Source of the DNA: Acidobacteriota bacterium
GTDB taxonomy: Bacteria > Acidobacteriota > Vicinamibacteria > Vicinamibacterales > 2-12-FULL-66-21
NCBI GenBank assembly: GCA_003222675.1
Contig: QHWT01000016.1
Span: 1-47,936, forward strand
DNA: 47,936 bases
Reading direction: 5' to 3'
Positions 9,879 through 46,307 of the stretch are shown here, one piece after another. How positions within the stretch are numbered: the first letter of the stretch is position 1; each line of letters starts with the position of its first letter. The translations under genes were made by a program, and so were the position numbers. A model generated the notes under the pieces. It saw only the letters and a program-made list of their open reading frames with translations, was not told the origin of the DNA and did no database searches.

Positions 9879-10853
9879 CTACCGCGGCCGGACCTCTGCG
9901 GCCGTCCGTGTCACACGCACCTCGTCTCCGATGTCGATAACCATCAGATCCTCGCCCATCTCCACGCGTCCCGAGTACGACCGCTTTGTCTGATCCACGA
10001 TTGCTGCTGTTCCCGGACTGTGGGAGAACACGGCCAGCCGCGGCGATACTCGGCTGAAGATGCCAGCCGCCTGCTCCGGCGTGGTGTGACGCGCCACGAT
10101 CGCTTCGAAGGGTCCCTGGCTCGGCACGAGTTTGCGTAGCACGTCCAGATCGATCGCCTCGTGGATCAACACGTCCACGCCCTTGCAGAAGGCGACGAGG
10201 TTGTCGCTTGGCGACGTATCGCCTGAGAGCGCCACCGAGCGCCTGGCGTAATCCACTCGGTACCCGTACGAGGGTTTCACAAGTCCGTGGGTCACGAGGA
10301 GTGCGGTGACCGTGACGCCGTTTCTCTCGTAGACCTTTCCTTCGCGGATATCGTGCGCGATCACCCTGATGCCGTCTGGGGAAAAATTTTCGTCCACGTC
10401 CCGGCGAACATGAATATCAAAGGCGAATGCTTCCTCCAGGTGACGCATCATGTCGCGCGTACCGTCCGGGCCCCACACTTCGAGCGGCACCTTCCGTCCT
10501 GGCGCGGCCGACCATGGTGTGAGCATCAGGTCGGGGATATCGACGACGTGGTCCGAATGCAGGTGCGTGAGGAACAGCTTCGTGACGCCGTCCATTGAAA
10601 AACCCGCCTGCACCGAGCGCTGCATGAATCCGCGCCCGGCATCGAACAGGAACCGTTCGCTGCCGGCCTCAACGAGCGTGCTGATGCCAGCCACGCCCAC
10701 ATGAACACGAGGTCCGCTCGCCGTCCCCAGCAGGGTGACGCGAATTTTCTTCAGCGGCACGGCGCCATTCACCTGCTGGGAGGTTTGCGCGATGGCCGTG
10801 CCGCACAGGTAGAGGCCCAGAACGCTCAAGAGAAGCCGGCGTCGTAAGATCAT
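9879..10853 (-). CDS. Secreted MBL-fold metallo-hydrolase (RNase Z-like)
   Basis: About 324 residues from ATG 10853, chosen because GGAG lies 6 bases upstream and the product then starts with a clean signal peptide 'MILRRRLLLSVLGLYLCGTA'. The metallo-beta-lactamase fold shows the metal motif 'THLHSDHV' (HxHxDH), 'VTHGLVKPSYGYRV', 'ALSGDTSPSDNL' (metal Asp), 'DVLIHEAID' and 'VFSHSPGT'. This arrangement is that of the RNase Z/arylsulfatase-like group that cleaves phosphodiesters or sulfate esters; the export signal argues for a periplasmic substrate. It sits between two copies of the antitoxin tail sequence. Confidence 0.8.
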   Translation of the reverse strand: MILRRRLLLSVLGLYLCGTAIAQTSQQVNGAVPLKKIRVTLLGTASGPRVHVGVAGISTLVEAGSERFLFDAGRGFMQRSVQAGFSMDGVTKLFLTHLHSDHVVDIPDLMLTPWSAAPGRKVPLEVWGPDGTRDMMRHLEEAFAFDIHVRRDVDENFSPDGIRVIAHDIREGKVYERNGVTVTALLVTHGLVKPSYGYRVDYARRSVALSGDTSPSDNLVAFCKGVDVLIHEAIDLDVLRKLVPSQGPFEAIVARHTTPEQAAGIFSRVSPRLAVFSHSPGTAAIVDQTKRSYSGRVEMGEDLMVIDIGDEVRVTRTAAEVRPR

Positions 10854-10933
10854 TGGGCGCTCCATAAAACGGACCACACTGTAGTGGGATGCACACGGGC
10901 ACGCGTCAGAAGCTCTCGTCTTACGCATCCTGT

Positions 10934-10951
10934 CGCCTCAAAGAGGTCTGA
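10934..10951 (+). repeat. Third copy of the antitoxin 3'-end sequence
   Basis: CGCCTCAAAGAGGTCTGA matches the last codons and stop of the two ribbon-helix-helix antitoxin genes (near 9692-9706 and 12076-12091). Only these bases are shared, so it is either a remnant of a third antitoxin copy or a junction repeat left by the duplication of this region. Confidence 0.4.
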
Positions 10952-10980
10952 TTTAAAGGTAATACCATCGAGGCTGCGGC

Positions 10981-11379
10981 CTACCGTTTTTCCGCGTCGG
11001 TTTGCGTGAGCTGATGAACGCGCTGGTGTGACAGGCCCAGCAATCGTGCCGCGTCGCGCGCACTCATCTTCAGCCGTCCGCCACGCAGCGTACGGACGGC
11101 GCGCCGGGCTGCGACGGCCGCCCGCCGATCTTCCCGTTCGGCTTTCTTTCGGAGTGTGCTATAGGCACGGACAGCCCGCGCGGCGCCCGTCGGCAGTTTC
11201 ACCTCGTCGATGATGATGGCCTTGCGTGCATTGTCTACGAACAGCTCCATTGCTTCGACGATGCGACGGCGAGCCTCGTCGACCGTGCGTCCCTGCGTGT
11301 GACAGCCGCGCAGTCCGCGCACTGACGCGACCCACCATCCAGACGGATCTCGCTCATATGCGACGCGATAGGACTTCAT
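10981..11379 (-). CDS. hicB: HicB-like antitoxin with C-terminal HTH
   Basis: 132 residues starting at ATG 11379, which overlaps the HicA stop (ATGA). The N-terminal half is the HicB partial RNase H fold: 'YRVAYERDPSGWWVASVRGL', 'GCHTQGRTVDEARRRIVEAM'. The C-terminal part carries a helix-turn-helix 'MSARDAARLLGLSHQRVHQL', so it can bind DNA and autoregulate. It should neutralise HicA. Length is usual for HicB with a DNA-binding tail. The gene order toxin then antitoxin is canonical. Confidence 0.9.
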   Translation of the reverse strand: MKSYRVAYERDPSGWWVASVRGLRGCHTQGRTVDEARRRIVEAMELFVDNARKAIIIDEVKLPTGAARAVRAYSTLRKKAEREDRRAAVAARRAVRTLRGGRLKMSARDAARLLGLSHQRVHQLTQTDAEKR

Positions 11380-23956: not shown

Positions 23957-24580
23957 ATGAGCCCTGAAGAATACGCCCGCGCCCGACGCGTGCTGATGCG
24001 CCGGGATCCTGTACTTGCGCCGGTCATCAGGAGGTTTCGCGAACGGTCGCTCATCGAGGGGCCTCCCGTCGATCCATTTTCGGCGCTCGTGCGAACGATT
24101 GTCGGCCAGCAGTTGTCGACGAAAGCGGCGGCGACGATTCATGGGCGGCTGATCGGTCTGATGCCCGGTGGCATCGCGACGCCGCAAGCGATTGGCGGCC
24201 TCGGCGACGATCAGCTACGGCAGGTCGGTATGAGCCGCCAGAAGAGCGCGTATCTCCGCGACCTTGCCGCGAAATCAGCCAGCGGCGAACTCCACCTCGA
24301 GGCCTTGTCCGAGATGACCGACGAGCAGGTCATCGACGCCATCACCAAGGTGAAGGGGCTCGGGCGATGGTCCGCCGAGATGTTCCTGATGTTCCGCCTC
24401 CGTCGGCCCGACGTGCTCCCGGTCGACGACCTCGGGATCGTGAACGCCATCCATCGTCTTTATAAGCTGCGCAAGAAACCCGACGCCGAGCGGATACGGA
24501 AGATGGGCGAAACGTGGCGACCCTATCGAACCGTCGCCTGTTACTACTTGTGGAGAAGTCTGGAGAATACGCCGCAATGA
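23957..24580 (+). CDS. DNA-3-methyladenine glycosylase (AlkA-like, HhH-GPD)
   Basis: 207 residues. A helical glycosylase with 'ALVRTIVGQQLSTKAAATIH' (active-site helix), the helix-hairpin-helix 'ITKVKGLGRWSAEMFLMFRL' and the catalytic Asp (Asp158) in 'VLPVDDLGIVNA'. It excises alkylated purines from DNA at the start of base-excision repair. Length fits the short bacterial AlkA group that lacks the N-terminal domain of E. coli AlkA. Its stop overlaps the next gene's start (ATGA), so it is translated with the amidohydrolase gene. Confidence 0.9.
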   Translation: MSPEEYARARRVLMRRDPVLAPVIRRFRERSLIEGPPVDPFSALVRTIVGQQLSTKAAATIHGRLIGLMPGGIATPQAIGGLGDDQLRQVGMSRQKSAYLRDLAAKSASGELHLEALSEMTDEQVIDAITKVKGLGRWSAEMFLMFRLRRPDVLPVDDLGIVNAIHRLYKLRKKPDAERIRKMGETWRPYRTVACYYLWRSLENTPQ

Positions 24581-34250: not shown

Positions 34251-34324
34251 TGGGAGGTCGTTCAACGGTAGGACACGTGGCTCTGGACCACGTTATCGGG
34301 GTTCGAATCCCTGCCTCCCAGCCA
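34251..34324 (+). tRNA. tRNA-Gln(CUG)
   Basis: 74 bases with encoded CCA. The acceptor TGGGAGG pairs with CCTCCCA, discriminator G. The anticodon stem CGTGG/CCACG encloses the loop CTCTGGA, giving anticodon CTG; the T arm is GGGGTTCGAATCCC. It decodes CAG. Its 3' 44 bases are duplicated at 46263, marking the insertion of an integrative element, with the intact tRNA kept at the left end. Confidence 0.95.
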
Positions 34325-35665
34325 AATCTCTAAGTCGAGATTTTCACGGTATTTAGGACTCGTTTCGCGCACGCGGTCGATCTCGTCCCCGGGCTCCTCA
34401 TCGACCGAACTCTTGACAGAAACTTGACAGGTTGAAAGCGAGGCCGATTCTCGCGGACCCGGATCGAACGTCTCGCCGCGCTCAAGGCGTGCCGCTGCGG
34501 CCTGGAGGTTCTCCAGTTTCTGGTTGTCGTAGCGCTCGGTGGTGATGATGGAGGCATGGCCGAGGAGGTCGCGCACTTGCGCCAGAGGGACGTTCTTCTC
34601 GACGAGCCGTGAGGCGTACTCGTGCCGCAGGTCGTGCCAGCGCAGGTTGATATGCCGGAACTCCGCGTGGCACTCCGGCGTTAGCGCCGTCCAGTTGTAG
34701 GACTTCCACACCGGCGCGACATCGTGAGCCTTCAGCACAGCCGTAACCCACGCCGTCCTGAACCTGCCGATGGGCTCGCCGGCTTCGTCGCTGAACACGA
34801 GGGCGTCGGCTGGCTTCTTCCCGCCATCGGCGTCGAGCTGCAACCATTCGAGGACCGCACGCAACCTCGCGGTCGCGATCGGCACGAGGCGGGTGCGTCG
34901 GCTCTTCGTCGTTTCGCCGCGCAAGGTGATCAGACCCCGAATGAGGTCTAGGTCCTTGAACCGAAGCGCGAGCATCTCGCCCTGCCGCATGCCCGTATCG
35001 AGCGCGGCGATGATCATCGAGCGCAGGAGCGGCGGTGCCACTGCGAGGAGTCGCGCTTCTTCGTTCTCGGCAACTCGTCTGCGCCGCTGGTTGTCCTCGC
35101 GCAGCTTGCGGACCAGGGTCTCGGTTCCGCGTCGGAACGGCGTCCGATCGATGTACTCGCGACCGACCGCCCAATTCATCATGTGGCGCAGGATCTCGAT
35201 CGTGCGGTTGATTGACGCCGGCGCCAAAACGCGAGGAGTCCTGCGTCGGCCAGCGATGCGCGGCTTCCTCAAGTCGGCGATGAAGTCTTCGACATCCGCC
35301 GTTCGTATCTCAGCGAGGGGTCGATCGCCGAAGTACTCGAGGATCGGCTTGAGCCGATAGTCGATCGTCTTGCCAATGGCGAGCTTCTTCGCGAAGACGT
35401 GGCGCTCTTTGTAGATGTCTGCGAACTGTTCGAACGTGAGCGCCGTCGTCTTGGGCTCGGGCTCCGCACGACGCTTCTCGAACGTGCCGGCTCGAACGCC
35501 CTTCTTCAGATCGTCGAGAACCGCGGCGGCCTCGGTCTTCGTCGTGATTTCGCGATTCGACCACTTCTCGAGGCTCACGCGCACGTGGCGAAATCTCGCC
35601 CACCAGGCGTGATCGCACCGATCGCGCGCCCTGCCCTTGTGTTCACACAGCTTGTAGAGACCCAC
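34262..35665 (-). CDS. Tyrosine integrase of the tRNA-Gln element
   Basis: The frame gives 467 residues. An N-terminal arm-binding part leads to the SAM-like core-binding domain ('LTFEQFADIYKERHVFAKKL', 'INRTIEILRHMMNWAVGREY'), then the catalytic domain: Arg in 'ALDTGMRQGEMLALRF', 'LRWHDLRHEYASRL' (HxxR), 'RDLLGHASIITTERYD' (His and the Tyr nucleophile). It recombines attP with the tRNA-Gln 3' half. Unusually the frame is open through the attachment core: the last residues ('LGGRDSNPDNVVQ') are antisense to the tRNA. Its C-terminus therefore depends on the integration site. The start ATG at 35665 gives a short cysteine/histidine-bearing leader ('YKLCEHKGRARDRCDHAWW'). Confidence 0.93.
   Translation of the reverse strand: MGLYKLCEHKGRARDRCDHAWWARFRHVRVSLEKWSNREITTKTEAAAVLDDLKKGVRAGTFEKRRAEPEPKTTALTFEQFADIYKERHVFAKKLAIGKTIDYRLKPILEYFGDRPLAEIRTADVEDFIADLRKPRIAGRRRTPRVLAPASINRTIEILRHMMNWAVGREYIDRTPFRRGTETLVRKLREDNQRRRRVAENEEARLLAVAPPLLRSMIIAALDTGMRQGEMLALRFKDLDLIRGLITLRGETTKSRRTRLVPIATARLRAVLEWLQLDADGGKKPADALVFSDEAGEPIGRFRTAWVTAVLKAHDVAPVWKSYNWTALTPECHAEFRHINLRWHDLRHEYASRLVEKNVPLAQVRDLLGHASIITTERYDNQKLENLQAAAARLERGETFDPGPRESASLSTCQVSVKSSVDEEPGDEIDRVRETSPKYRENLDLEIWLGGRDSNPDNVVQSHVSYR
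34281..34325 (+). repeat. attL: 45-bp direct repeat in the tRNA-Gln 3' half
   Basis: Identical over 45 bases to 46263-46307, starting CTCTGGACCACG and ending at CCAGCCAA. It covers the anticodon loop, T arm, acceptor and CCA, the usual core for tyrosine integrases. Confidence 0.92.
34408..34434 (+). repeat. Paired CTTGACA heptamers near attL
   Basis: CTTGACA occurs at 34412-34418 and 34423-34429, period 11. The surrounding 27 bases match 46135-46161 at 24 positions, on the inner side of the opposite end. The layout suits integrase arm-type binding sites; this pair lies inside the 3' part of the integrase gene. Confidence 0.5.
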
Positions 35666-38008: not shown

Positions 38009-39046
38009 TCAGGCGACGTCAACCAGGGGAGAAAGATGCAGGTACTGTCGTGAGAGCTGGACGCACTCGACGCGCCCGTGATCTCGTTCCATGGCATCGG
38101 CCGTTTGCGTCGAACGGGCGATCCACAAGGCATTGCCGCCCTGTGCTAGCCAGTGACGGTAGAGAGCCCTGAAACGTGGAGCGCGGAACGCGCTCGCGGC
38201 TCGCTTAAACCGTTGGTCCGTAGCCGGCTGGTCCCCGGCAGCACGACGCTGACGCTCTCGGAAATACCACTCCATCTCTTCCACGGCCGACGGATGCAGA
38301 GGCTCGGCGAGGTGCTCGCGAGCAGCCCGCTGATAGAGCAGCTGCGCCCTCTTCAGCGGCCGCGGAACCAGGAGCCGAATCGTCCACCGATGGAGCACTG
38401 TCAGCATCGCCATGTGTCGCAACAAAAACAGCCGGAAATCCATCGGCGAGGGTTTGGTGACCAGGTAGAGGAGGACGTGAGGATGAGAATACGGCTGAAC
38501 GCCAATCGGCAACTTGTCTGGGAAGTACCGAACGACCTTGGCCTCACCATCTCCGAATGTGAGGTGTGGATAATCAATCTTCGGCAGGCGGTCACCGAGG
38601 TACCGCATGAAGTGCTGCCGTTTGTCGACGGCTGTACCGAGCCACACGAAGTCGTCGTTCTCGAGAACACCGTCCAGAATCATCACACGTTCGATCATGC
38701 GGCCGGGTGCAGCAGGCTTTCGGAAACGGCTGTCAGGCTCGCAAATCGCGGCCCACAGCGGTTTGTAGTGAACGTGGAACATGCGGCCTCGATGCAGGCG
38801 GCCTATCGCAATCGGCGTCGCGTATCGGCGCTGGACCAGCAGGTTGATGAAGTCCGTGCTCTTCTGCCCATGGACGATGCCGGCGAAGCTGCAGTACTGC
38901 CGCTCGACGAACACGCCCGAGTGCACGAGCACATGCGCCAGAAACCGTGCCTGGCGCTCAGTAAAACCGAACGCGGCGAGAGATTCCTCGCGCTGAGCGT
39001 TTGCGATTTCCACCGTCCAACGATCGGGTTCGGTCGGGAGGTTCAT
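38009..39046 (-). CDS. Mobile-element wHTH protein (replication-relaxation-like)
   Basis: 345 residues from ATG 39046, whose ATG overlaps the preceding gene's stop (ATGA). The N-terminus has a winged-helix pattern 'AAFGFTERQARFLAHVLVHS' then 'FVERQYCSFAGIVHGQKSTD' and 'LLVQRRYATPIAIGRLHRGR'. Residues about 100-230 hold 'RMIERVMILDGVLENDDFVW' and 'PVHVLLYLVT'-like beta strands. Proteins of this type occur in pairs in integrated elements of acidobacteria and deltaproteobacteria, next to relaxases; the exact function is unknown. The frame extends further upstream to 39430, but that part belongs to the neighbour. Confidence 0.5.
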   Translation of the reverse strand: MNLPTEPDRWTVEIANAQREESLAAFGFTERQARFLAHVLVHSGVFVERQYCSFAGIVHGQKSTDFINLLVQRRYATPIAIGRLHRGRMFHVHYKPLWAAICEPDSRFRKPAAPGRMIERVMILDGVLENDDFVWLGTAVDKRQHFMRYLGDRLPKIDYPHLTFGDGEAKVVRYFPDKLPIGVQPYSHPHVLLYLVTKPSPMDFRLFLLRHMAMLTVLHRWTIRLLVPRPLKRAQLLYQRAAREHLAEPLHPSAVEEMEWYFRERQRRAAGDQPATDQRFKRAASAFRAPRFRALYRHWLAQGGNALWIARSTQTADAMERDHGRVECVQLSRQYLHLSPLVDVA

Positions 39047-39995
39047 CCCAGGAGCTCCTCGGCGAGTCGCGCGTCTGGTGTCCGGCGGCCACTCCGTCCG
39101 CCGACTGTGCAGCCAAGGGAGCGGTAGCGCGTAAACCCTGACCGCGCCGAGGCGGCGGCGTGAGCGCCGCGATAGTGGCCGGTCGTGACCTCGATGTCCT
39201 CGTGGCGCGAACGGCCATCGCGGTCCTGGTATTCGATGCGCGCGTCGGGGAAATGAGCCTGCTCGTCGTAGTACGGCAGGTCGTGCTGGCGCGCCCAAAG
39301 CGCGATCTCTTTCGGCTCGCGATCTGGCCTGCCGTCGCTCTCCTTGCGACCGCGGTTGTGCTCCTGAAGGAACCGCTGATAGTCCCGCTTGAGCTCGTAG
39401 TCCAGAACGACGCGCTCGACTGATAGGCACGATAGACGTTCGTATCGTGTGTCAGTTCGCGGGGCTTTCTGATGCCCTCGTAGAATGTTTGGTGGGGCTC
39501 ATGGGCACGACCCTGGCGGCCATAGCGGTTTGCCTCCAGAAGATCACGCCCCCGGTTTGTCAACGTCACAGCGCGGTCGTTTGAGCTGAGGGGAGAGATG
39601 CGAATTAGCCCTTCGTTTTCGAGATGGCGGAGGCTTCTGCGAATGTCCTGCGATTGGTCGCGGGGCTCGTGCAGGTCGCTTTTGGAAAGCACCCGAAACG
39701 CGCCGACCGTCGCCAACATGCGGCTCTCGGCACCGTTGATCTCATAGACCCGGTCGCGCTCCCGGACCAGTTCGCGCTTGTGGCCGCGAGGCAGGTCGAG
39801 ATCCTTAGTAAACACGTCGCGCGTGTCGGATTCGTCATTGCGATCGCGCTCGCTCGGGCCGCCACGACTGCCGCGACTTCGATCGCCGGAATCTCCTCGC
39901 TCGCGGTCCGCAGTCGATCGAGGATCGTGCCGGTCCCACATCAGCCGCTCCCTTCCAGATGAAGCGGGCTGAAGGCCATCAATGCGTGAACGCAT
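39043..39995 (-). pseudogene. Mobilisation-type wHTH protein, frame broken near 39430
   Basis: From 39995 downward: 'RVYEINGAESRMLATVGAFR', 'RRSLRHLENEGLIRISPLSS', 'NRGRDLLEANRYG', up to 'THDTNVYRAYQ'. The frame is then lost and resumes in another with 'RVVLDYELKRDYQRFLQEHN', 'EIALWARQHDLPYYDEQAHF' and 'RIEYQDRDGRSRHEDIEVTT', ending in ATGA with the next gene. This is the winged-helix/nuclease-like protein of mobilisable elements (replication-relaxation type). About 15-20 residues are missing between the halves, so a short deletion has occurred. If it is needed for transfer, this copy is dead. Confidence 0.55.
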
Positions 39996-41178: not shown

Positions 41179-42108
41179 ATGGACGACGCTGACGCCCACA
41201 TTCGCGTCGCTGCGTTCAGGTTCCTGGAAGAGCAGCGGCGGCTTGCTCCGGATGAGGGTGTCCTCACGCGGAAAGTGCTGGAGCAGGGGTTCACCTACGA
41301 AGGACAGCGCGTACCGCTCGTGGGCCCCCAAGGCATCTTCAAACCACGACTGCTGCGCGAGGTCCCACTGAGCATCACCACGGTGCCAGTGATTGAGGGC
41401 GAGACACGCCCCTACGACGATGCGTTCGGCGAGGACGGTCTGCTGCGTTACCGGTATCGAGGAACAGACCCGCGCCATCACGAGAATGTCGGGCTACGAC
41501 TCGCTATGGAGCGGAAACTACCGCTTGTTTACTTCCACGGCGTCGTGCCCGGCCTCTACGTCGCCGAGTGGCCCGTCTACATTGTCGGCGACGATCCTGC
41601 CCGCCTGACATTCACCGTGAGTGTTGACGACCGTCGGTTTGCGAGCCTGGGGTCCACGGGGCAGCTCGACGTGGAAGAAGCCGAGATCCGACGGCGATAT
41701 GCGACACGCGTGTTTCAACAGCGCCTGCACCAGCGCGAGTTTCGCGAAAGGGTCGTGCGAGCGTACCAGTATCACTGCAGCGTCTGTCGGCTCCGCAGGG
41801 ACGAGCTGCTGGAGGCCGCTCACATCGTGCCCGACGCCGACCCGCTCGGCCTCCCTTCACTCCCGAACGGACTTGCTCTCTGCGCGCTCCATCACGCCGC
41901 CTTTGATGCTCACCTGATCGGCATCAGGCCGGACTACCAGGTTGAGGTCCGCAGGGATGTCCTGGAGGACAAGGACGGGCCGATGTTGATTCATGGACTG
42001 CAGGGGTTCCACGGCGCACGCCTACTCGTCCCAAGGAGGCCAAGCTCGCAGCCCGACCGGCACCTGCTCGAAGAACGATACGCGCGATTTCTTCGTCACA
42101 CAGGATAG
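41179..42108 (+). CDS. HNH endonuclease, intact
   Basis: 309 residues. N-terminal 'MDDADAHIRVAAFRFLEEQR' plus 'VLEQGFTYEGQRVPLVGPQG' form a helical-beta domain; 'YRYRGTDPRHHENVGLRLAM' continues it. The C-terminal HNH domain is complete: 'YHCSVCRLRRDELLEAAHIV' (CxxC and His of the H-N-H) and 'PNGLALCALHHAAFDAHLIG' (Asn and His). This is a restriction-like HNH_2 family. It follows the broken HNH gene, same strand, 60 bases apart. Similar stand-alone HNH enzymes act against methylated or foreign DNA; no methylase is encoded nearby, which would fit a modification-dependent enzyme. Confidence 0.85.
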   Translation: MDDADAHIRVAAFRFLEEQRRLAPDEGVLTRKVLEQGFTYEGQRVPLVGPQGIFKPRLLREVPLSITTVPVIEGETRPYDDAFGEDGLLRYRYRGTDPRHHENVGLRLAMERKLPLVYFHGVVPGLYVAEWPVYIVGDDPARLTFTVSVDDRRFASLGSTGQLDVEEAEIRRRYATRVFQQRLHQREFRERVVRAYQYHCSVCRLRRDELLEAAHIVPDADPLGLPSLPNGLALCALHHAAFDAHLIGIRPDYQVEVRRDVLEDKDGPMLIHGLQGFHGARLLVPRRPSSQPDRHLLEERYARFLRHTG

Positions 42109-42122
42109 TCAGCCCGGGAAGC

Positions 42123-42761
42123 TCAAGTCGCTTTTTGCCGCTGTCTCAGCCGAGCGCGCACCGCCGAAATGGCATCTTGTATCGATCCGTCGTTCACTAG
42201 AACCGACACTGGATACATGCCGCGCGAGGCCTCACGTCGCGCGAGCGAATGATAAAGCGCAGATAGTTGCGATGCCTGCCGTGTTGGTCGCCGCCCGTGC
42301 GGGCGTGACCGAGTAACGAGGAAGATCTTCGTGGGTACTACTCCTGACCAGGCCAGTTCCTCGACGGCTAGCAGCCTGTCCAACATGTGTCGCGAAACAC
42401 CGCTGGCGCGTCCGTACACCCACGTCGACCACCAGAACCTGTCGAGAACTACGGTCCGCCCAGCGTTCAACGACGGCAGGATTTGCGACTGAATCGTCTC
42501 CACATGTGCCGCCGTGATGAGTAGCTGCAGAGCACTGTGGTTGAGGGATCGAACTCCGAAGCGGGATGGTCTGTGATAAAGACGGTAGATGTGTGCGGCC
42601 AAAGTGCCCGGCTCCTGGCCAGGGAACGATGCTCGGTCACATCTGATTCCATCCCGTCGGAGGCCTAGGACGAGGCTTCGGGTTAAAGTCGTCTTGCCGA
42701 CACCGTCGATACCCTCGAAAACAATGAGTTGACCTGTCCTGTCAATGGACCAAGTTCTCAT
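42123..42761 (-). CDS. Thymidylate kinase-like P-loop kinase
   Basis: 212 residues from ATG 42761. P-loop 'FEGIDGVGKTTLTRSLVLGL' (Gly17-Thr24), a conserved 'FPGQEPGTLAAHIYRLYH', the substrate motif Asp107-Arg108 in 'VVLDRFWWSTWVYGR' and a LID-like 'RSRPHGRRPT'. This is the dTMP/deoxynucleoside kinase family, which adds phosphate to nucleoside monophosphates with ATP. It differs from housekeeping Tmk by a short LID region. An upstream ATG at 42866 would overlap the opposite gene and adds an unconserved leader. It is divergent from, and only about 180 bases from, the NDT/MazG gene. I infer a role in the same nucleotide-handling system. Confidence 0.8.
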   Translation of the reverse strand: MRTWSIDRTGQLIVFEGIDGVGKTTLTRSLVLGLRRDGIRCDRASFPGQEPGTLAAHIYRLYHRPSRFGVRSLNHSALQLLITAAHVETIQSQILPSLNAGRTVVLDRFWWSTWVYGRASGVSRHMLDRLLAVEELAWSGVVPTKIFLVTRSRPHGRRPTRQASQLSALYHSLARREASRGMYPVSVLVNDGSIQDAISAVRARLRQRQKAT

Positions 42762-42812
42762 AAGTACCGGCGTCTCATCGGCTTCGGCCGATGGCTTGGA
42801 AAGTCCCGCCGC

Positions 42813-42866
42813 GGTTTTCCACGCGATTTCCACAGTGTTTGCACAGGATTCGCGCAGGTTTTCCAC
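42813..42866. repeat. TTTCCAC repeats in the divergent promoter region
   Basis: GGTTTTCCAC occurs at 42813-42822 and 42857-42866 with a shorter ATTTCCAC at 42826-42833. They precede the NDT/MazG promoter and lie between the divergent genes, so they are candidates for a shared operator. Confidence 0.45.
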
Positions 42867-42897
42867 CGATAACCCATTGTTTTACAGTGGTTTACGG

Positions 42898-42926
42898 TTG
42901 ACAATGCTCGGCGCCCATTCTACAGT
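42898..42926 (+). promoter_or_regulatory. Sigma-70-type promoter of the NDT/MazG-AAA operon
   Basis: A perfect -35 TTGACA (42898-42903), 17-base spacer and TACAGT -10 (42921-42926). Transcription would start near 42933, which excludes the in-frame starts at 42745 and 42904 and supports ATG 42946. Confidence 0.65.
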
Positions 42927-42945
42927 CCGTTTTCCCCGCAGCGAC

Positions 42946-43794
42946 ATGAAGCGGCACGCTCAATCGACCGGTCAGATAGTCCTGTTTCCCACTCCTGGCG
43001 AGTTGGCAGGGGAAGCGTCTGCCAATTTCGGCACGTCCGAGCTGGTCGTATCCGCCGAACGCCCGCCGGTGATCATCCCAGAAACGGCCGAGATTGTTGT
43101 CTCGGGTTCGTTCCGTAAAGACTTGGCCGGTTTTACCCGAGAGTTCGAAGAGCTTCGCGACCTGGGTTTCCGCATCCTGTCACCGACAAACACGAGAGCC
43201 GTCAGCGAGGAGGATGGATTCGTTTTCATGGAGGGAGAGGAAACTGCCGCCCCCGAAACGATCGAACTTCGGCACTTGGACGCGATCCAGCGTTCCGCTT
43301 TTGTGTGGCTACATGCTCCCGAGGGATACGTTGGCCCGAGTGCCGCGCTTGAAGTAGGATTCGCCCGCGCTTCCGGCATTCCCGTGTATTCACGCGTAGC
43401 TCCAACAGAGAGGGTGCTTCAGAATCTCGTCCAGACAGTCTCATCGCCAAGCCAACTCGTGACTGTACTCAAAAGCCATCCGGTGCCCCCGCTTCCGGCT
43501 GTCCAACCATTCCAGAAGTACTATGCACGCGCCGCAGTTCGACGCGGATACGAGAAAGAAAGCGCGCAAGATACTTTGCTGCTAATGCTTGAGGAGTTTG
43601 GAGAGCTCGCGCGCGCGCTTCGCAAACGGCAAAAACTGCGACGTGACAGTAAGGGGCGTGTGGCGCAGGAAGAGCATGAACTCGCCGACATCTTCATCTA
43701 CGTCGTACACATGGCTAATGTGCTTGGCGTCGACCTGGCTCAAGCTGTTCAAAAAAAAGAACAAGTGAATATCCAGAGATTCTTGACGAGGTAG
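42946..43794 (+). CDS. Nucleoside deoxyribosyltransferase-like/MazG fusion protein
   Basis: 282 residues from ATG 42946. Residues about 40-170 are an NDT-like Rossmann domain: 'IVVSGSFRKDLAGFTREFEE' (Ser-Gly-Ser-Phe loop), 'GFRILSPTNTRAV' and 'GPSAALEVGFARASGIPVYS', where Glu136 matches the catalytic Glu of nucleoside 2-deoxyribosyltransferases. Residues about 190-280 are a MazG helical NTP-pyrophosphohydrolase: 'LLLMLEEFGELARALRKRQK' (EExxE, Glu216/217/220) and 'QEEHELADIFIYVVHMA' (ExxD, Glu245-Asp248). Together they could strip or hydrolyse (deoxy)nucleotides. The AAA+ gene starts six bases after the stop, so both form an operon. Codon use is less GC-rich than the chromosome, indicating transfer. 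Confidence 0.82.
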   Translation: MKRHAQSTGQIVLFPTPGELAGEASANFGTSELVVSAERPPVIIPETAEIVVSGSFRKDLAGFTREFEELRDLGFRILSPTNTRAVSEEDGFVFMEGEETAAPETIELRHLDAIQRSAFVWLHAPEGYVGPSAALEVGFARASGIPVYSRVAPTERVLQNLVQTVSSPSQLVTVLKSHPVPPLPAVQPFQKYYARAAVRRGYEKESAQDTLLLMLEEFGELARALRKRQKLRRDSKGRVAQEEHELADIFIYVVHMANVLGVDLAQAVQKKEQVNIQRFLTR

Positions 43795-43800
43795 GGCTCG

Positions 43801-46131
43801 TTGACGGACTTCGAACTTCTTCGCACGGGAAGGCGGAGGCTGCATGAGTTCTGTTCGGTCCACGAAGCGAGTGTTGATTTCTTTCGTTCGGGTGGGAGCT
43901 ACAGACTGCACCAACGAGAGGAGGGCGACCTAGGCTCACGACTCCGACACATGACGAGCACTGCAACATGTCTTGAGTCCTTGCTCGACAGCCCCAGCAT
44001 CGATCTTGCTGATCTGTCAGCTCGGATCAGCTGGTTCGTGTCGCAAGCGCTCGCGAGACGCGACAAGGATTGGACCTCCGAAGGTTCTGCAGCTATTTAC
44101 TGCCGTTGCCGAGCACTTCCTCTGATAATTCAGTACGCCGCAGCCGACGCCTTTCCGCGGATTGGCGCGCACTTGGAGCGTGTTTTTCTCCAGCTCAATA
44201 ACGGTGAGCGATTCGGGATTGGAGAAGCTGATGCCCAAGAGGATCGTCCCGAACGATGGTACCCTCCGAACGCATTCCACACATCTTGGGCACTTGAGGC
44301 GGTAGAACGCGCGAAACGATTTGGAAGCGCTTTTCGTGGCCTCAGAAGGCGATTGCGGTTTCCACAACGATACAACGCGATGTTGGTGTGGGCTTGGGAA
44401 GTTCTCGGCTGCCAGATCGCACTTCATGACGCGAAATCGTCTGGACGCGATACGGACCAATTACTGTACGCGCTAGTAATCGCAACGCGCTTTTCTGCCC
44501 CAAGCGTCTACTCGCAATCCACAATTCGGTATCGAGATCTCGTCAAGGGGGCACTTGAAGTCTTTTTTGCTGAACAAGACCCTACCGGCACCTGGGTTCA
44601 TCATGAGCCGCTCTTTCACTACCGCGAAGCGGGCAATGCGTATTGCTACATCTTCGAATCGCTGACTCCGCTCCTGAAGAATGCTCTACGTGCAGACGCG
44701 GCCTGGTTGAGGGCGCTCCTGCGCCCATTTGCGCCGAAGTTGTTTGAACTGCTTGCCTATGCCGAAGCGACAAAGCTTCCGCTCGGTAACGGGCGGGCCG
44801 TTGGCTGGTCCTCGGGCCACCGGACGAATATGCCGTTTGCGGAGAGTTGGGCAACGGCCGCGGTCTTCGGGTGCATGCAGGCGATGAGGCGGCTCGTGGG
44901 CATCTGGACGAAAGAAGATGCTCTTAAAGAGCTGAACCATCTGACTCCGTTGGAAAGCCCTGATGACGCGATTTCCAAACTTGTCGAGCGTGGGCACAGC
45001 TGGTCGGATTCGTCGACTGTGGCGGAGCAGCTCATAACTATGTTTGTCAATCCACGCCGCATGAGTCCTCAGCCTGAAATAATCGATCCGGACGAGCGTT
45101 CGATTGGCGACACACAGGCGCGGGCGGCGATTCTGTTTGGTCCTCCCGGAACTAGCAAGACAACGTTGATTCAGACCGTGTCTGCTGCAGTTGGCTGGGA
45201 GTACGTGGAGCTGCATCCGAGCCATTTTGTGGCTGGAGGGCTGCCAAATGTTCAACGCACAGCGGACGAGATTTTTACCCGGCTGATGGAATTGGATCGC
45301 TGCGTAGTGCTATTCGACGAGATCGATGAGCTGATGCGCGAGCGTGAAACAGAACCAGATGCTTTCGGGAGGTTCTTAACGACCAGCATGCTTCCGAAGC
45401 TTGCGGAACTTTGGAAACAGAGGCGGATTCTCTACTTCGTGGGCACGAATCACATTGGTCATTTCGATCAGGCCCTGACACGTAGCCAGCGGTTTGACGC
45501 CCTCATCTTGGTGCCGCCGCCCGCGTTCGCCGCGAAGAAACGACGGCTGCTGAAGGTTCTGTCCGAGTTAGATCCTAGGATGCCCGTCGACGTGGTGGTT
45601 ACTGCCCAACAGGTGCAGAGAGAGCTCGACGCGATCTCAGCCACGGAGCTAAAACCAAACGACGAGCTTCACGAGGAGCATCTCCTGGCGAAGTTCGTTC
45701 TAATCCGGTGGGACCAACTGGAAGAGCTGGCGCACATCTTGTTGCGTTTGGCCCGTAACAGCAGGTCGCCGCGCCTATTACTGGATGGACCGATGTTGAA
45801 ATCCGCGCTCACCGAGATGGCCGACCCTCGATTGAAGCAGTATGGGCCGTATATGGCCTTCCTTAAAGACCGTGCCCGCTCTGGTCGCGACTTCGGAAAG
45901 GATGTTGTGTGGCTGGTCAAGGGACGCAAACCGACATCACGTAAAGCACAAACGTTTCTGCGTACTGCGAACGGCTCCGATTGGTGCATCGGTACCCGCG
46001 AGCTCATAGCGGATGCTGTAGATGCGGACTTGAAGTTTAGTCCGGACGGCACCGTAACGTTTGGCCGATCGCGCGCTAATCGGCGGTCCCGTCGGCCCAA
46101 TCAGTCGGTCGCAAGGCGGCGAGCTCGCTAA
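43801..46131 (+). CDS. AAA+ ATPase with large helical N-terminal domain
   Basis: 776 residues from TTG 43801, preceded by GAGG at a good distance and six bases behind the MazG fusion. Residues about 60-420 are helical with tryptophan-rich motifs ('WYPPNAFHTSWALEAVERAK', 'EQDPTGTWVHHEPLFHYREA', 'GRAVGWSSGHRTNMPFAESW') that suggest an alpha/alpha toroid as in terpene-cyclase-like folds. Residues about 435-600 are AAA+: Walker A 'LFGPPGTSKTTL' (447-455), Walker B 'CVVLFDEIDELM' (Asp506-Glu507), sensor 1 'YFVGTNH' (Asn550), a possible arginine finger in 'SQRFDAL'. The C-terminal part is helical and basic. Likely the sensing or power subunit of the system. Start and domain assignment for the N-terminus are inference. 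Confidence 0.85.
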   Translation: MTDFELLRTGRRRLHEFCSVHEASVDFFRSGGSYRLHQREEGDLGSRLRHMTSTATCLESLLDSPSIDLADLSARISWFVSQALARRDKDWTSEGSAAIYCRCRALPLIIQYAAADAFPRIGAHLERVFLQLNNGERFGIGEADAQEDRPERWYPPNAFHTSWALEAVERAKRFGSAFRGLRRRLRFPQRYNAMLVWAWEVLGCQIALHDAKSSGRDTDQLLYALVIATRFSAPSVYSQSTIRYRDLVKGALEVFFAEQDPTGTWVHHEPLFHYREAGNAYCYIFESLTPLLKNALRADAAWLRALLRPFAPKLFELLAYAEATKLPLGNGRAVGWSSGHRTNMPFAESWATAAVFGCMQAMRRLVGIWTKEDALKELNHLTPLESPDDAISKLVERGHSWSDSSTVAEQLITMFVNPRRMSPQPEIIDPDERSIGDTQARAAILFGPPGTSKTTLIQTVSAAVGWEYVELHPSHFVAGGLPNVQRTADEIFTRLMELDRCVVLFDEIDELMRERETEPDAFGRFLTTSMLPKLAELWKQRRILYFVGTNHIGHFDQALTRSQRFDALILVPPPAFAAKKRRLLKVLSELDPRMPVDVVVTAQQVQRELDAISATELKPNDELHEEHLLAKFVLIRWDQLEELAHILLRLARNSRSPRLLLDGPMLKSALTEMADPRLKQYGPYMAFLKDRARSGRDFGKDVVWLVKGRKPTSRKAQTFLRTANGSDWCIGTRELIADAVDADLKFSPDGTVTFGRSRANRRSRRPNQSVARRRAR

Positions 46132-46262: not shown

Positions 46263-46307
46263 CTCTGGACCACGTTATCGGGGTTCGAATCCCTGCCTCC
46301 CAGCCAA
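46263..46307 (+). repeat. attR: 45-bp direct repeat of the tRNA-Gln 3' half
   Basis: Identical to 34281-34325. The tRNA is not rebuilt here: the preceding bases do not continue the 5' half. It marks the right end of the element. Confidence 0.92.

What the first reader, a model, noticed from the sequence alone, without database searches (positions are those of the whole stretch)
42123..46131. Candidate nucleotide-centred defence system: TMK-like kinase, NDT/MazG fusion and helical-AAA+ ATPase
Seen: three genes at the attR end of a tRNA-borne element, with a strong promoter, tight spacing (6 bases) and a divergent kinase within 180 bases. Known: MazG hydrolyses NTPs/dNTPs, NDT enzymes exchange or release bases from deoxynucleosides, TMK phosphorylates dTMP, and AAA+ proteins drive sensors or remodelling. 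Inferred: the set might deplete or alter (deoxy)nucleotides on phage infection, with the AAA+ protein sensing the threat. I do not recognise this exact combination as a described system.
Basis: partly seen in the sequence, partly recalled or inferred. Interest (0 to 1): 0.82.

Follow-up and report, generated by a model that had tools for sequence, protein, structure and literature searches.

The report
Nucleotide-destroying enzyme paired with AAA+ motor
A bacterial mobile element carries a conserved gene pair, an enzyme that looks built to dismantle DNA building blocks and an ATP-driven motor protein, plus a kinase whose relatives sit in gene clusters for chemically altered thymine, so it is probably an unrecognised defence or quality-control module for DNA building blocks.

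Summary
A TMK-like kinase (42123-42761, -) diverges by 184 bp from an N-glycosidase/MazG fusion (42946-43794, +), followed after 6 bp by a mostly helical AAA+ ATPase (43801-46131, +), at the attR end of a tRNA-Gln element. The set recurs: of 19 non-redundant loci with this AAA+ family, 16 have the N-glycosidase gene directly upstream (9 of 16 fused to MazG), in several phyla; the full three-gene set recurs in a Bipolaricaulota MAG. The third partner varies: a kinase (5 of 16) or a DNA-glycosylase relative of AlkA or AlkC type (7 of 16). The N-glycosidase domain folds like DNPH1, which destroys 5-hydroxymethyl-dUMP. The kinase belongs to a distinct clade whose other 7 known members (window and L009 aside) lie in base-modification clusters (6 with the 5-hmdU DNA kinase helical domain, 1 with Nmad2/MazG_C/UDG/TIR). 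I propose a module that degrades (modified) deoxynucleotides in two steps, dNTP to dNMP to base plus sugar phosphate, controlled by the AAA+ motor, probably as phage defence. Biochemistry and defence are inferred, not shown; the catalytic Asp and Tyr of DNPH1 are replaced. My paper searches found no description of the pair.

The parts
42123..42761 (-). TMK-like P-loop kinase (212 aa) of a clade mostly marked by DRxWWST
   Evidence: Pfam Thymidylate_kin 8.3e-15; clade with kinases of 5-hmdU DNA kinase clusters, support 94/92
42762..42945 (.). Divergent intergenic region with promoter-like site and GTTTTCCAC repeats
42898..42926 (+). Promoter-like TTGACA-17-TACAGT
42946..43794 (+). DNPH1/NDT-fold N-glycosidase domain (aa 45-180) fused to MazG domain (aa about 185-280)
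   Evidence: Pfam MazG; DNPH1 best structural match Z 13.1; EExGELA...ELAD in 9 of 9 MazG-bearing rows
43801..46131 (+). AAA+ ATPase with a mostly helical N-terminal region of about 420 aa
   Evidence: Pfam AAA 8.3e-19; model pLDDT 81.7; p97/Vps4-type AAA Z about 17-18
41179..42108 (+). Neighbouring HNH restriction-type endonuclease (element cargo, not core)
   Evidence: HNH_2 1.6e-11; PADLOC HNH 3.1e-20; NF045808 62 bits, below its cut-off of 180
34262..35665 (-). Tyrosine integrase of the carrier element
   Evidence: Phage_integrase 9.4e-22
34251..34324 (+). tRNA-Gln, attachment-site gene
46263..46307 (+). attR: 45-bp copy of the tRNA-Gln 3' part (34281-34325)

Best explanation
A deoxynucleotide-destroying module. 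Step 1 (inferred from family and intact motif): the MazG domain cleaves a dNTP, probably a modified pyrimidine one, to dNMP plus pyrophosphate. Step 2 (inferred from fold and invariant Glu136): the fused DNPH1-like domain cuts the base off the dNMP, leaving base plus deoxyribose-5-phosphate, so that the loss is irreversible. Step 3 (inferred from neighbours): the TMK-clade kinase works on the same dNMP or modified base (5-hydroxymethyl-dUMP type); in other loci its place is taken by another kinase or by a DNA-glycosylase relative that would act on the same bases once in DNA. Step 4 (inferred): the AAA+ protein binds, assembles or gates the nucleotide enzyme in response to infection. Net effect: depletion or sanitation of (modified) deoxynucleotides, most likely as phage defence.
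For: Pair in 16 of 19 non-redundant AAA+ family loci above 350 bits. In two samples of 396 phylum genomes, drawn the same way, the full-length AAA+ family (3) and the glycosidase family (4) share 3 genomes, the window's own included. MazG motif intact in 9 of 9. Glu136 and His110 invariant in 17 of 17. Fold nearest DNPH1, including DNPH1 with hmdUMP. DNPH1 hydrolyses hmdUMP (PMC10603095 passages; PMC10483697 start of abstract in a listing). Kinase clade: 7 of 7 members other than window and L009 lie in base-modification clusters. Glycosylase relatives beside 7 of 16 pairs. ATPase motifs intact in 15 of 15 AAA+ rows but for one P-to-A in a Walker A. Mobile element with HNH nuclease.
Against: DNPH1's catalytic Asp80 aligns with an invariant His and Tyr24 with Val/Ala/Thr, so hydrolysis is not assured; that sequence alignment is weak (hhalign E 0.073, probability 0.8%), and a deoxyribosyltransferase scores nearly as well in fold (12.6 against 13.1). 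Substrate untested. No defence assay. L013, L014, L016 and L017 lie beside core chromosomal genes. A PADLOC scan of 10 further neighbours gave hits for 4, each to single genes and none forming a recognised system. 7 of 16 glycosidases lack MazG. The TMK-clade kinase is in 2 of 16 loci. No relative of the pair turned up in the viral scans. More distant AAA+ relatives (L025, L042, L007/L040, 150-240 bits) show no glycosidase in the stretches held.
Confidence: 0.42

Rival explanations
1. Nucleotide-pool sanitation rather than immunity: the module removes damaged or oxidised pyrimidine deoxynucleotides (such as hmdU), with glycosylases clearing the same bases from DNA; it spreads on elements as a stress-tolerance trait.
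For: DNPH1 is a sanitiser; AlkA/AlkC-type glycosylase relatives beside 7 of 16 pairs; loci beside DNA polymerase III-, gyrB- and FhaA-type genes.
Against: Very patchy: full-length AAA+ in 3 of 396 phylum genomes and 2 of 396 in a second phylum, of which one is the genome of L015 itself and the other a partial distant match. On an integrative element here and next to TrwB/TrwC conjugation genes in L010. The kinase clade is tied to modification clusters.
Confidence: 0.22
2. The DNPH1/NDT-like domain is a sensor that binds a nucleotide signal; the AAA+ protein (or MazG) is the effector.
For: The catalytic Asp and Tyr are changed; a relative in L077 is fused to a membrane domain (8xMP, 28.0 bits against cut-off 30) beside a Drt8 reverse transcriptase, an input-effector layout.
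Against: The nucleophile Glu is invariant in 17 of 17, and fusion to a MazG domain with intact motif suggests sequential catalysis.
Confidence: 0.18
3. NAD+-hydrolysing abortive-infection effector, like the NDT-fold effector of Retron-Eco1.
For: NDT-like proteins are retron effectors, and Retron-Eco1 is reported to hydrolyse NAD+ (passage and reference title seen in PMC12548924).
Against: Best structural matches are nucleoside-monophosphate N-hydrolases and deoxyribosyltransferases; fused MazG and dNMP-linked neighbours point to nucleotides; no reverse transcriptase among the window proteins scanned.
Confidence: 0.1
4. Element-borne nucleotide metabolism that helps the element itself, or unrelated passengers without joint function.
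For: The TMK-clade kinase is divergent and rare in the family (2 of 16).
Against: Pair adjacency in 16 of 19 loci, short gaps or overlaps, and repeated partner types.
Confidence: 0.08

Closest known systems
DNPH1/RCL (2'-deoxynucleoside 5'-phosphate N-hydrolase; 5-hydroxymethyl-dUMP N-hydrolase)
   Same: Fold (rat DNPH1 Z 13.1, rmsd 2.4, 121 residues; human DNPH1 with hmdUMP Z 12.7), GS[IF]R loop, nucleophile Glu
   Different: Asp80 to His, Tyr24 to V/A/T; fused to MazG in 9 of 16 loci; paired with AAA+
5-hmdU DNA kinase clusters (TMK-like kinase + HMUDK_hel + weakly TS-like gene + MazG_C, XRE, ImmA in several)
   Same: The window kinase is in the same clade as their kinase
   Different: No HMUDK_hel, TS-like or MazG_C protein among the 9 window proteins scanned; N-glycosidase-MazG and AAA+ instead
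DefensePredictor systems with thymidylate synthase, dNMP kinase, 5-hmdU kinase domains (PMC13092281; section 5 and passages seen)
   Same: Nucleotide-modification enzymes in anti-phage context; MazG and UDG among predicted, unvalidated ones
   Different: No DNPH1-like-MazG/AAA+ pair in the passages I saw; supplements and figures not read
IetAS
   Same: AAA domain scores against IetA (3.4e-10)
   Different: Only the AAA module matches; no protease partner seen
Retron-Eco1 NDT-like effector
   Same: NDT-like protein in an immune context
   Different: No reverse transcriptase among the window proteins scanned; partner genes differ
PADLOC candidate PDC-M51
   Same: The kinase matches PDC-M51B (9.2e-13)
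   Different: No other PDC-M51 protein among the seven window proteins scanned; no held paper names it

Membership tests
dTMP kinase | Curated dTMP kinase model cut-off (TIGR00041, 83.25 bits) | tested here: not met
   54.1 bits; P-loop and DR motif present
dTMP kinase | Thymine-contacting Arg and Gln of canonical TMK (roles recalled) | tested here: not met
   Against E. coli TMK (4tmk), AAR becomes AAH and AYQG loses the Gln
5-hmdU DNA kinase | Kinase clade | tested here: met
   9-member clade, support 94/92; 230-303 bits against at most 62 for the other rows
5-hmdU DNA kinase | HMUDK_hel domain, fused or adjacent | tested here: not met
   Absent from the 9 window proteins scanned, which include both neighbours of the kinase
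DNPH1-type dNMP N-glycosidase | Fold | tested here: met
   Top VIA-align match, Z 13.1; deoxyribosyltransferases of the same superfamily nearly tied
DNPH1-type dNMP N-glycosidase | Catalytic triad Tyr24-Asp80-Glu104 | tested here: not met
   Glu kept in 17 of 17; Asp to His in 17 of 17, Tyr to V/A/T, on a weak alignment
MazG pyrophosphohydrolase | Pfam cut-off and EExxE...ExxD metal motif (motif recalled) | tested here: met
   25.8 bits against 22; motif in 9 of 9 rows
Classical AAA ATPase | Walker A/B, sensor 1, second region of homology | tested here: met
IetAS | IetA plus S8-family protease IetS (partner recalled) | tested here: not met
   Only the AAA core matches IetA; the adjacent gene is the glycosidase-MazG; no protease family among the 9 window proteins scanned by Pfam
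Retron | Reverse transcriptase plus ncRNA | tested here: inconclusive
   No RT family among the window proteins scanned; ncRNA not searched
Anti-phage defence system | Protection against phage | not testable with these tools
   Needs an experiment

The most novel reading that the evidence does not exclude
An undescribed immune strategy: an AAA+-controlled two-domain enzyme that recognises hypermodified (5-hydroxymethyl-dU type) nucleotides made by phages, converts dNTP to dNMP and then irreversibly to base plus sugar phosphate, aided by a kinase captured from phage-type base-hypermodification pathways or by dedicated DNA glycosylases, so that phages with modified thymine are starved or their DNA is picked apart.
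Probability: 0.2. Interest if true: 0.85.

Novelty: new variant of a known kind. Interest (0 to 1): 0.62.

Why it matters
It would link nucleotide-pool sanitation (DNPH1 type), base hypermodification and antiphage defence in one modular locus, give a prokaryotic setting for a DNPH1-like enzyme coupled to an AAA+ motor, and offer a directly testable prediction: that hosts destroy modified DNA precursors made by phages.

Tried and rejected
Ordinary second dTMP kinase: rejected as the main reading (clade, altered base pocket). IetAS: AAA core only. Viral origin of the pair: no relative in the viral-contig scans (pattern-limited) and none with the helical region in phages (2 records, AAA part only; P0002 was not searched in phages). 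P0002 in plasmids: 2 partial matches, one read as L069, not tallied. Pfam NDT alone was too weak (0.029), so a structure was used. The A8 kinase profile found none at E <= 1e-38 in a 388-genome sample of another phylum. The 21 phage records matching P0001 were not placed in the tree. Five of 39 kinase rows were dropped from the tree as shorter than 120 residues (L048, L049, L058, L065, L066). The WWST label alone is not one clade, because L083 and L084 lack it. Dropped from the AAA+ tally: L026-L029 (generic AAA, at most 85 bits) and L025, L042, L007/L040 (150-240 bits; the 350-bit line is my choice). Duplicates dropped: L001 (= window), L005/L038 (= L020), L030 (= L009), L039 (= L006), L041 (= L015). 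The PADLOC RT_UG29 and RTasDnaG-like hits of L022:3358-5145 cover about residues 11-378 and were read by eye as a DnaG-type primase, untested. Motif shared between the intergenic regions of window and L009: none seen. Paper searches bearing on the pair or the set; none of their listed papers, by title, start of abstract or the passages I opened (PMC13092281, PMC9430817), describes it. The library lacks most subscription papers and all bioRxiv preprints, and Burroughs 2015 was not held.
Full report
What is there. The window is contig C15 of a 7.16-Mb genome; its phylum is probably Acidobacteriota, because the same-phylum genome G286 has a contig of the same length (599,299) as an Acidobacteria record that holds the same locus. 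An integrative element sits in tRNA-Gln (34251-34324), with an integrase and a 45-bp perfect repeat of the tRNA 3' part at 34281-34325 and 46263-46307. At its right end lie the kinase (42123-42761, -), the N-glycosidase/MazG fusion (42946-43794, +) and the AAA+ gene (43801-46131, +); the gaps are 184 and 6 bp. A promoter-like TTGACA-17-TACAGT lies before the second gene. The gene before the cluster is an HNH endonuclease of restriction type.

The conserved core. A genome-contig scan with a three-row AAA+ alignment returned 21 loci. With loci and after removing duplicates, 19 loci score above 350 bits with the AAA+ profile (L017 is split between two frames, 357 and 371 bits). In 16 of the 19 a gene of the N-glycosidase family lies directly upstream: window, L006, L009-L017, L019-L022, L024. 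The three without: L018 (AAA+ lacks its N-terminal part), L023 (the AAA+ gene begins at base 152 of the contig) and L008 (a double-ThyX gene in that place). Below the 350-bit line, which is my choice, L025 (240), L042 (184) and L007/L040 (150) show no glycosidase in the stretches held. The profiles were built mostly from these loci, so the scores are not independent evidence, but plain blastp with P0002 and P0003 shows 13 of the 15 non-window pairs (all but L009 and L021, whose glycosidase frames the ORF picker had missed). Records are labelled Acidobacteria (several orders), Bipolaricaulota, Dormibacterota, Actinobacteria (three), Betaproteobacteria and Spirosoma, mostly MAGs. In two samples of 396 phylum genomes, drawn the same way, the full-length AAA+ family is in 3 (a fourth hit, G386, covers only the AAA part) and the glycosidase family in 4; 3 genomes are shared, including the window's own; the hypergeometric probability is 3.9e-7, or about 4e-5 by hand without the window's genome.

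Variable partners. Nine of the 16 glycosidases are fused to MazG: window and L009-L016. Next to the pair are: the TMK-clade kinase, divergent, in window and L009; another P-loop kinase in L011 and L013 (AAA_18 above cut-off) and in L014 (AAA_18 26.7 bits, below its cut-off of 29.4), and also beside the AAA+ gene of L018; an AlkA-type HhH-GPD DNA-glycosylase relative whose ORF overlaps the AAA+ ORF in L006, L017 and L019; an AlkC-type HEAT-repeat relative upstream in L015, L016, L020 and L021. L020 and L015 match AlkC at 2.4e-16 and 7.1e-14; L016 has only a sub-threshold Pfam match (0.037) but is 57% identical to L015; L019 matches 3-methyladenine glycosylases at 1.9e-13. In L015 and L016 one gene lies between. 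So 12 of 16 have a kinase or a glycosylase relative beside them; in L010, L012, L022 and L024 I recognised none, though not every neighbour there was scanned. The host chromosome also has an AlkA-type gene (23957-24580), outside the element.

The kinase. P0001 scores below the dTMP-kinase cut-off (54.1 against 83.25) and lacks residues aligned to the E. coli TMK Arg in AAR and Gln in AYQG (their thymine role is recalled). A tree of 34 rows (39 candidates, 5 short ones dropped) puts it in a 9-member clade (94/92), nearest to L009 (99/95); the 9 score 230-303 bits with the A8 profile, the rest 62 or less. I first tracked the clade by the motif WWST, which 7 of 9 have; L083 and L084 do not. Members were found in 25 viral loci (2 of them), 5 plasmid records (1), 17 genomes of family loci (2) and 392 phylum genomes (4 with the window); 388 genomes of another phylum gave none. 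The 7 members other than window and L009: L037, L043, L044, L082, L083 and L084 lie with or are fused to the 5-hmdU DNA kinase helical domain HMUDK_hel (by Pfam in L037, L043, L044; by blastp at E <= 2e-125 in L082-L084), and L068 lies with ThsB-type TIR, Nmad2, MazG_C and UDG genes. A weakly TS-like gene (PF00303 16.8 bits in L037, below the cut-off of 24.3; no Pfam match in L043) and its relatives accompany L037, L043 and L082-L084. So the window kinase comes from a lineage otherwise found in base-hypermodification clusters.

The N-glycosidase. The AlphaFold model (A7, 17 rows; mean pLDDT 75.7, block means 87-95 for residues 51-170) matches rat DNPH1 (Z 13.1, rmsd 2.4 over 121), human DNPH1 with hmdUMP (12.7), a deoxyribosyltransferase (12.6) and MilB (about 11.5); rows within 1 of each other are tied, and Foldseek E-values are only about 1e-3. 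Glu136, aligned with the DNPH1 nucleophile Glu104, is invariant; the DNPH1 acid Asp80 aligns with an invariant His110, and Tyr24 with Val/Ala/Thr (the hhalign match itself is weak, E 0.073). The roles of E104, D80 and Y24 are from passages of PMC10603095. The MazG motif EExGELA...ELAD is intact in 9 of 9.

The AAA+ protein. Fifteen-row model, mean pLDDT 81.7; residues 1-420 mostly helix; the AAA part matches p97, Vps4 and spastin (Z about 17-18). ATPase motifs are intact. It is therefore probably an active hexameric remodeller (inference).

Defence context. For: the mobile element and HNH neighbour here; TrwB/TrwC conjugation genes beside L010; an integrase-like ORF beside L018 (read by eye); the glycosidase domain in L077 fused to an 8xMP-like membrane domain (28.0 bits, cut-off 30) next to a Drt8 reverse transcriptase (2.2e-149); the kinase relative L068 among TIR genes. 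The DefensePredictor paper (PMC13092281: section 5 and passages seen; figures and supplements not) reports validated systems that include thymidylate synthase and 5-hydroxymethyluracil kinase domains; the legend of that figure also lists dNMP kinase and NMAD, and whether they share one system I did not see; MazG, MazG-C, aGPT-Pplase and a nucleotide-modification domain are predicted there and stated to be unvalidated. Against: L013, L014, L016 and L017 lie near MacB/FtsX-, gyrB-, FhaA- and polIII-type genes, and a PADLOC scan of 10 neighbours gave hits for 4, each to single genes.

Reading. The pieces meet at the dNMP: MazG makes it from dNTP, a DNPH1-like enzyme destroys it, a kinase of the hmdU lineage may act at the same node, and DNA glycosylases cut the same bond in DNA. 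I therefore propose a controlled two-step destroyer of (modified) deoxynucleotides, most likely defensive. Only the gene arrangement, families, folds and motifs are shown; substrates, control by the AAA+ protein and phage protection are inferred.

Noticed in passing
L077:4717-7386: Drt8 reverse transcriptase followed by an NDT/DNPH1-like domain fused to an 8xMP-like membrane domain: possible DRT8 effector.
   Followed up: partly
L037:577-6706: 5-hmdU DNA kinase cluster in a bacterial genome: TMK-like, HMUDK_hel, weakly TS-like, MazG-MazG_C, C1 peptidase, and by eye ImmA/IrrE and XRE; similar sets in L083, L084 (with a dUTPase-looking gene) and L043 (viral contig).
   Followed up: partly
L068:2274-13603: Mesorhizobium plasmid island: TMK-clade kinase, ThsB-like TIRs, Nmad2, MazG_C, uracil-DNA glycosylase, patatin.
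   Followed up: partly
L008:4451-9737: Parabacteroides plasmid: double-ThyX protein, related AAA+ protein, HIT protein, PRA-PH/MazG-superfamily protein and dihydrofolate reductase in one run.
   Followed up: partly
window 38009-39995 (-): Apparently broken reading frame in the element; two overlapping ORFs, the parts scanned have no Pfam family above cut-off.
   Followed up: no
window 42813-42866: GGTTTTCCAC repeated 44 bp apart in the divergent promoter region, resembling DnaA-box-like sequence by eye.
   Followed up: no
L015:9893-10843 and L016:9756-10592: A second, MazG-less glycosidase-family gene downstream of the pair in two actinobacteria.
   Followed up: no
L017:1900-4271 and 10698-11195: AAA+ gene split between two frames, plus a second AAA+ fragment on the opposite strand of the same contig.
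   Followed up: no
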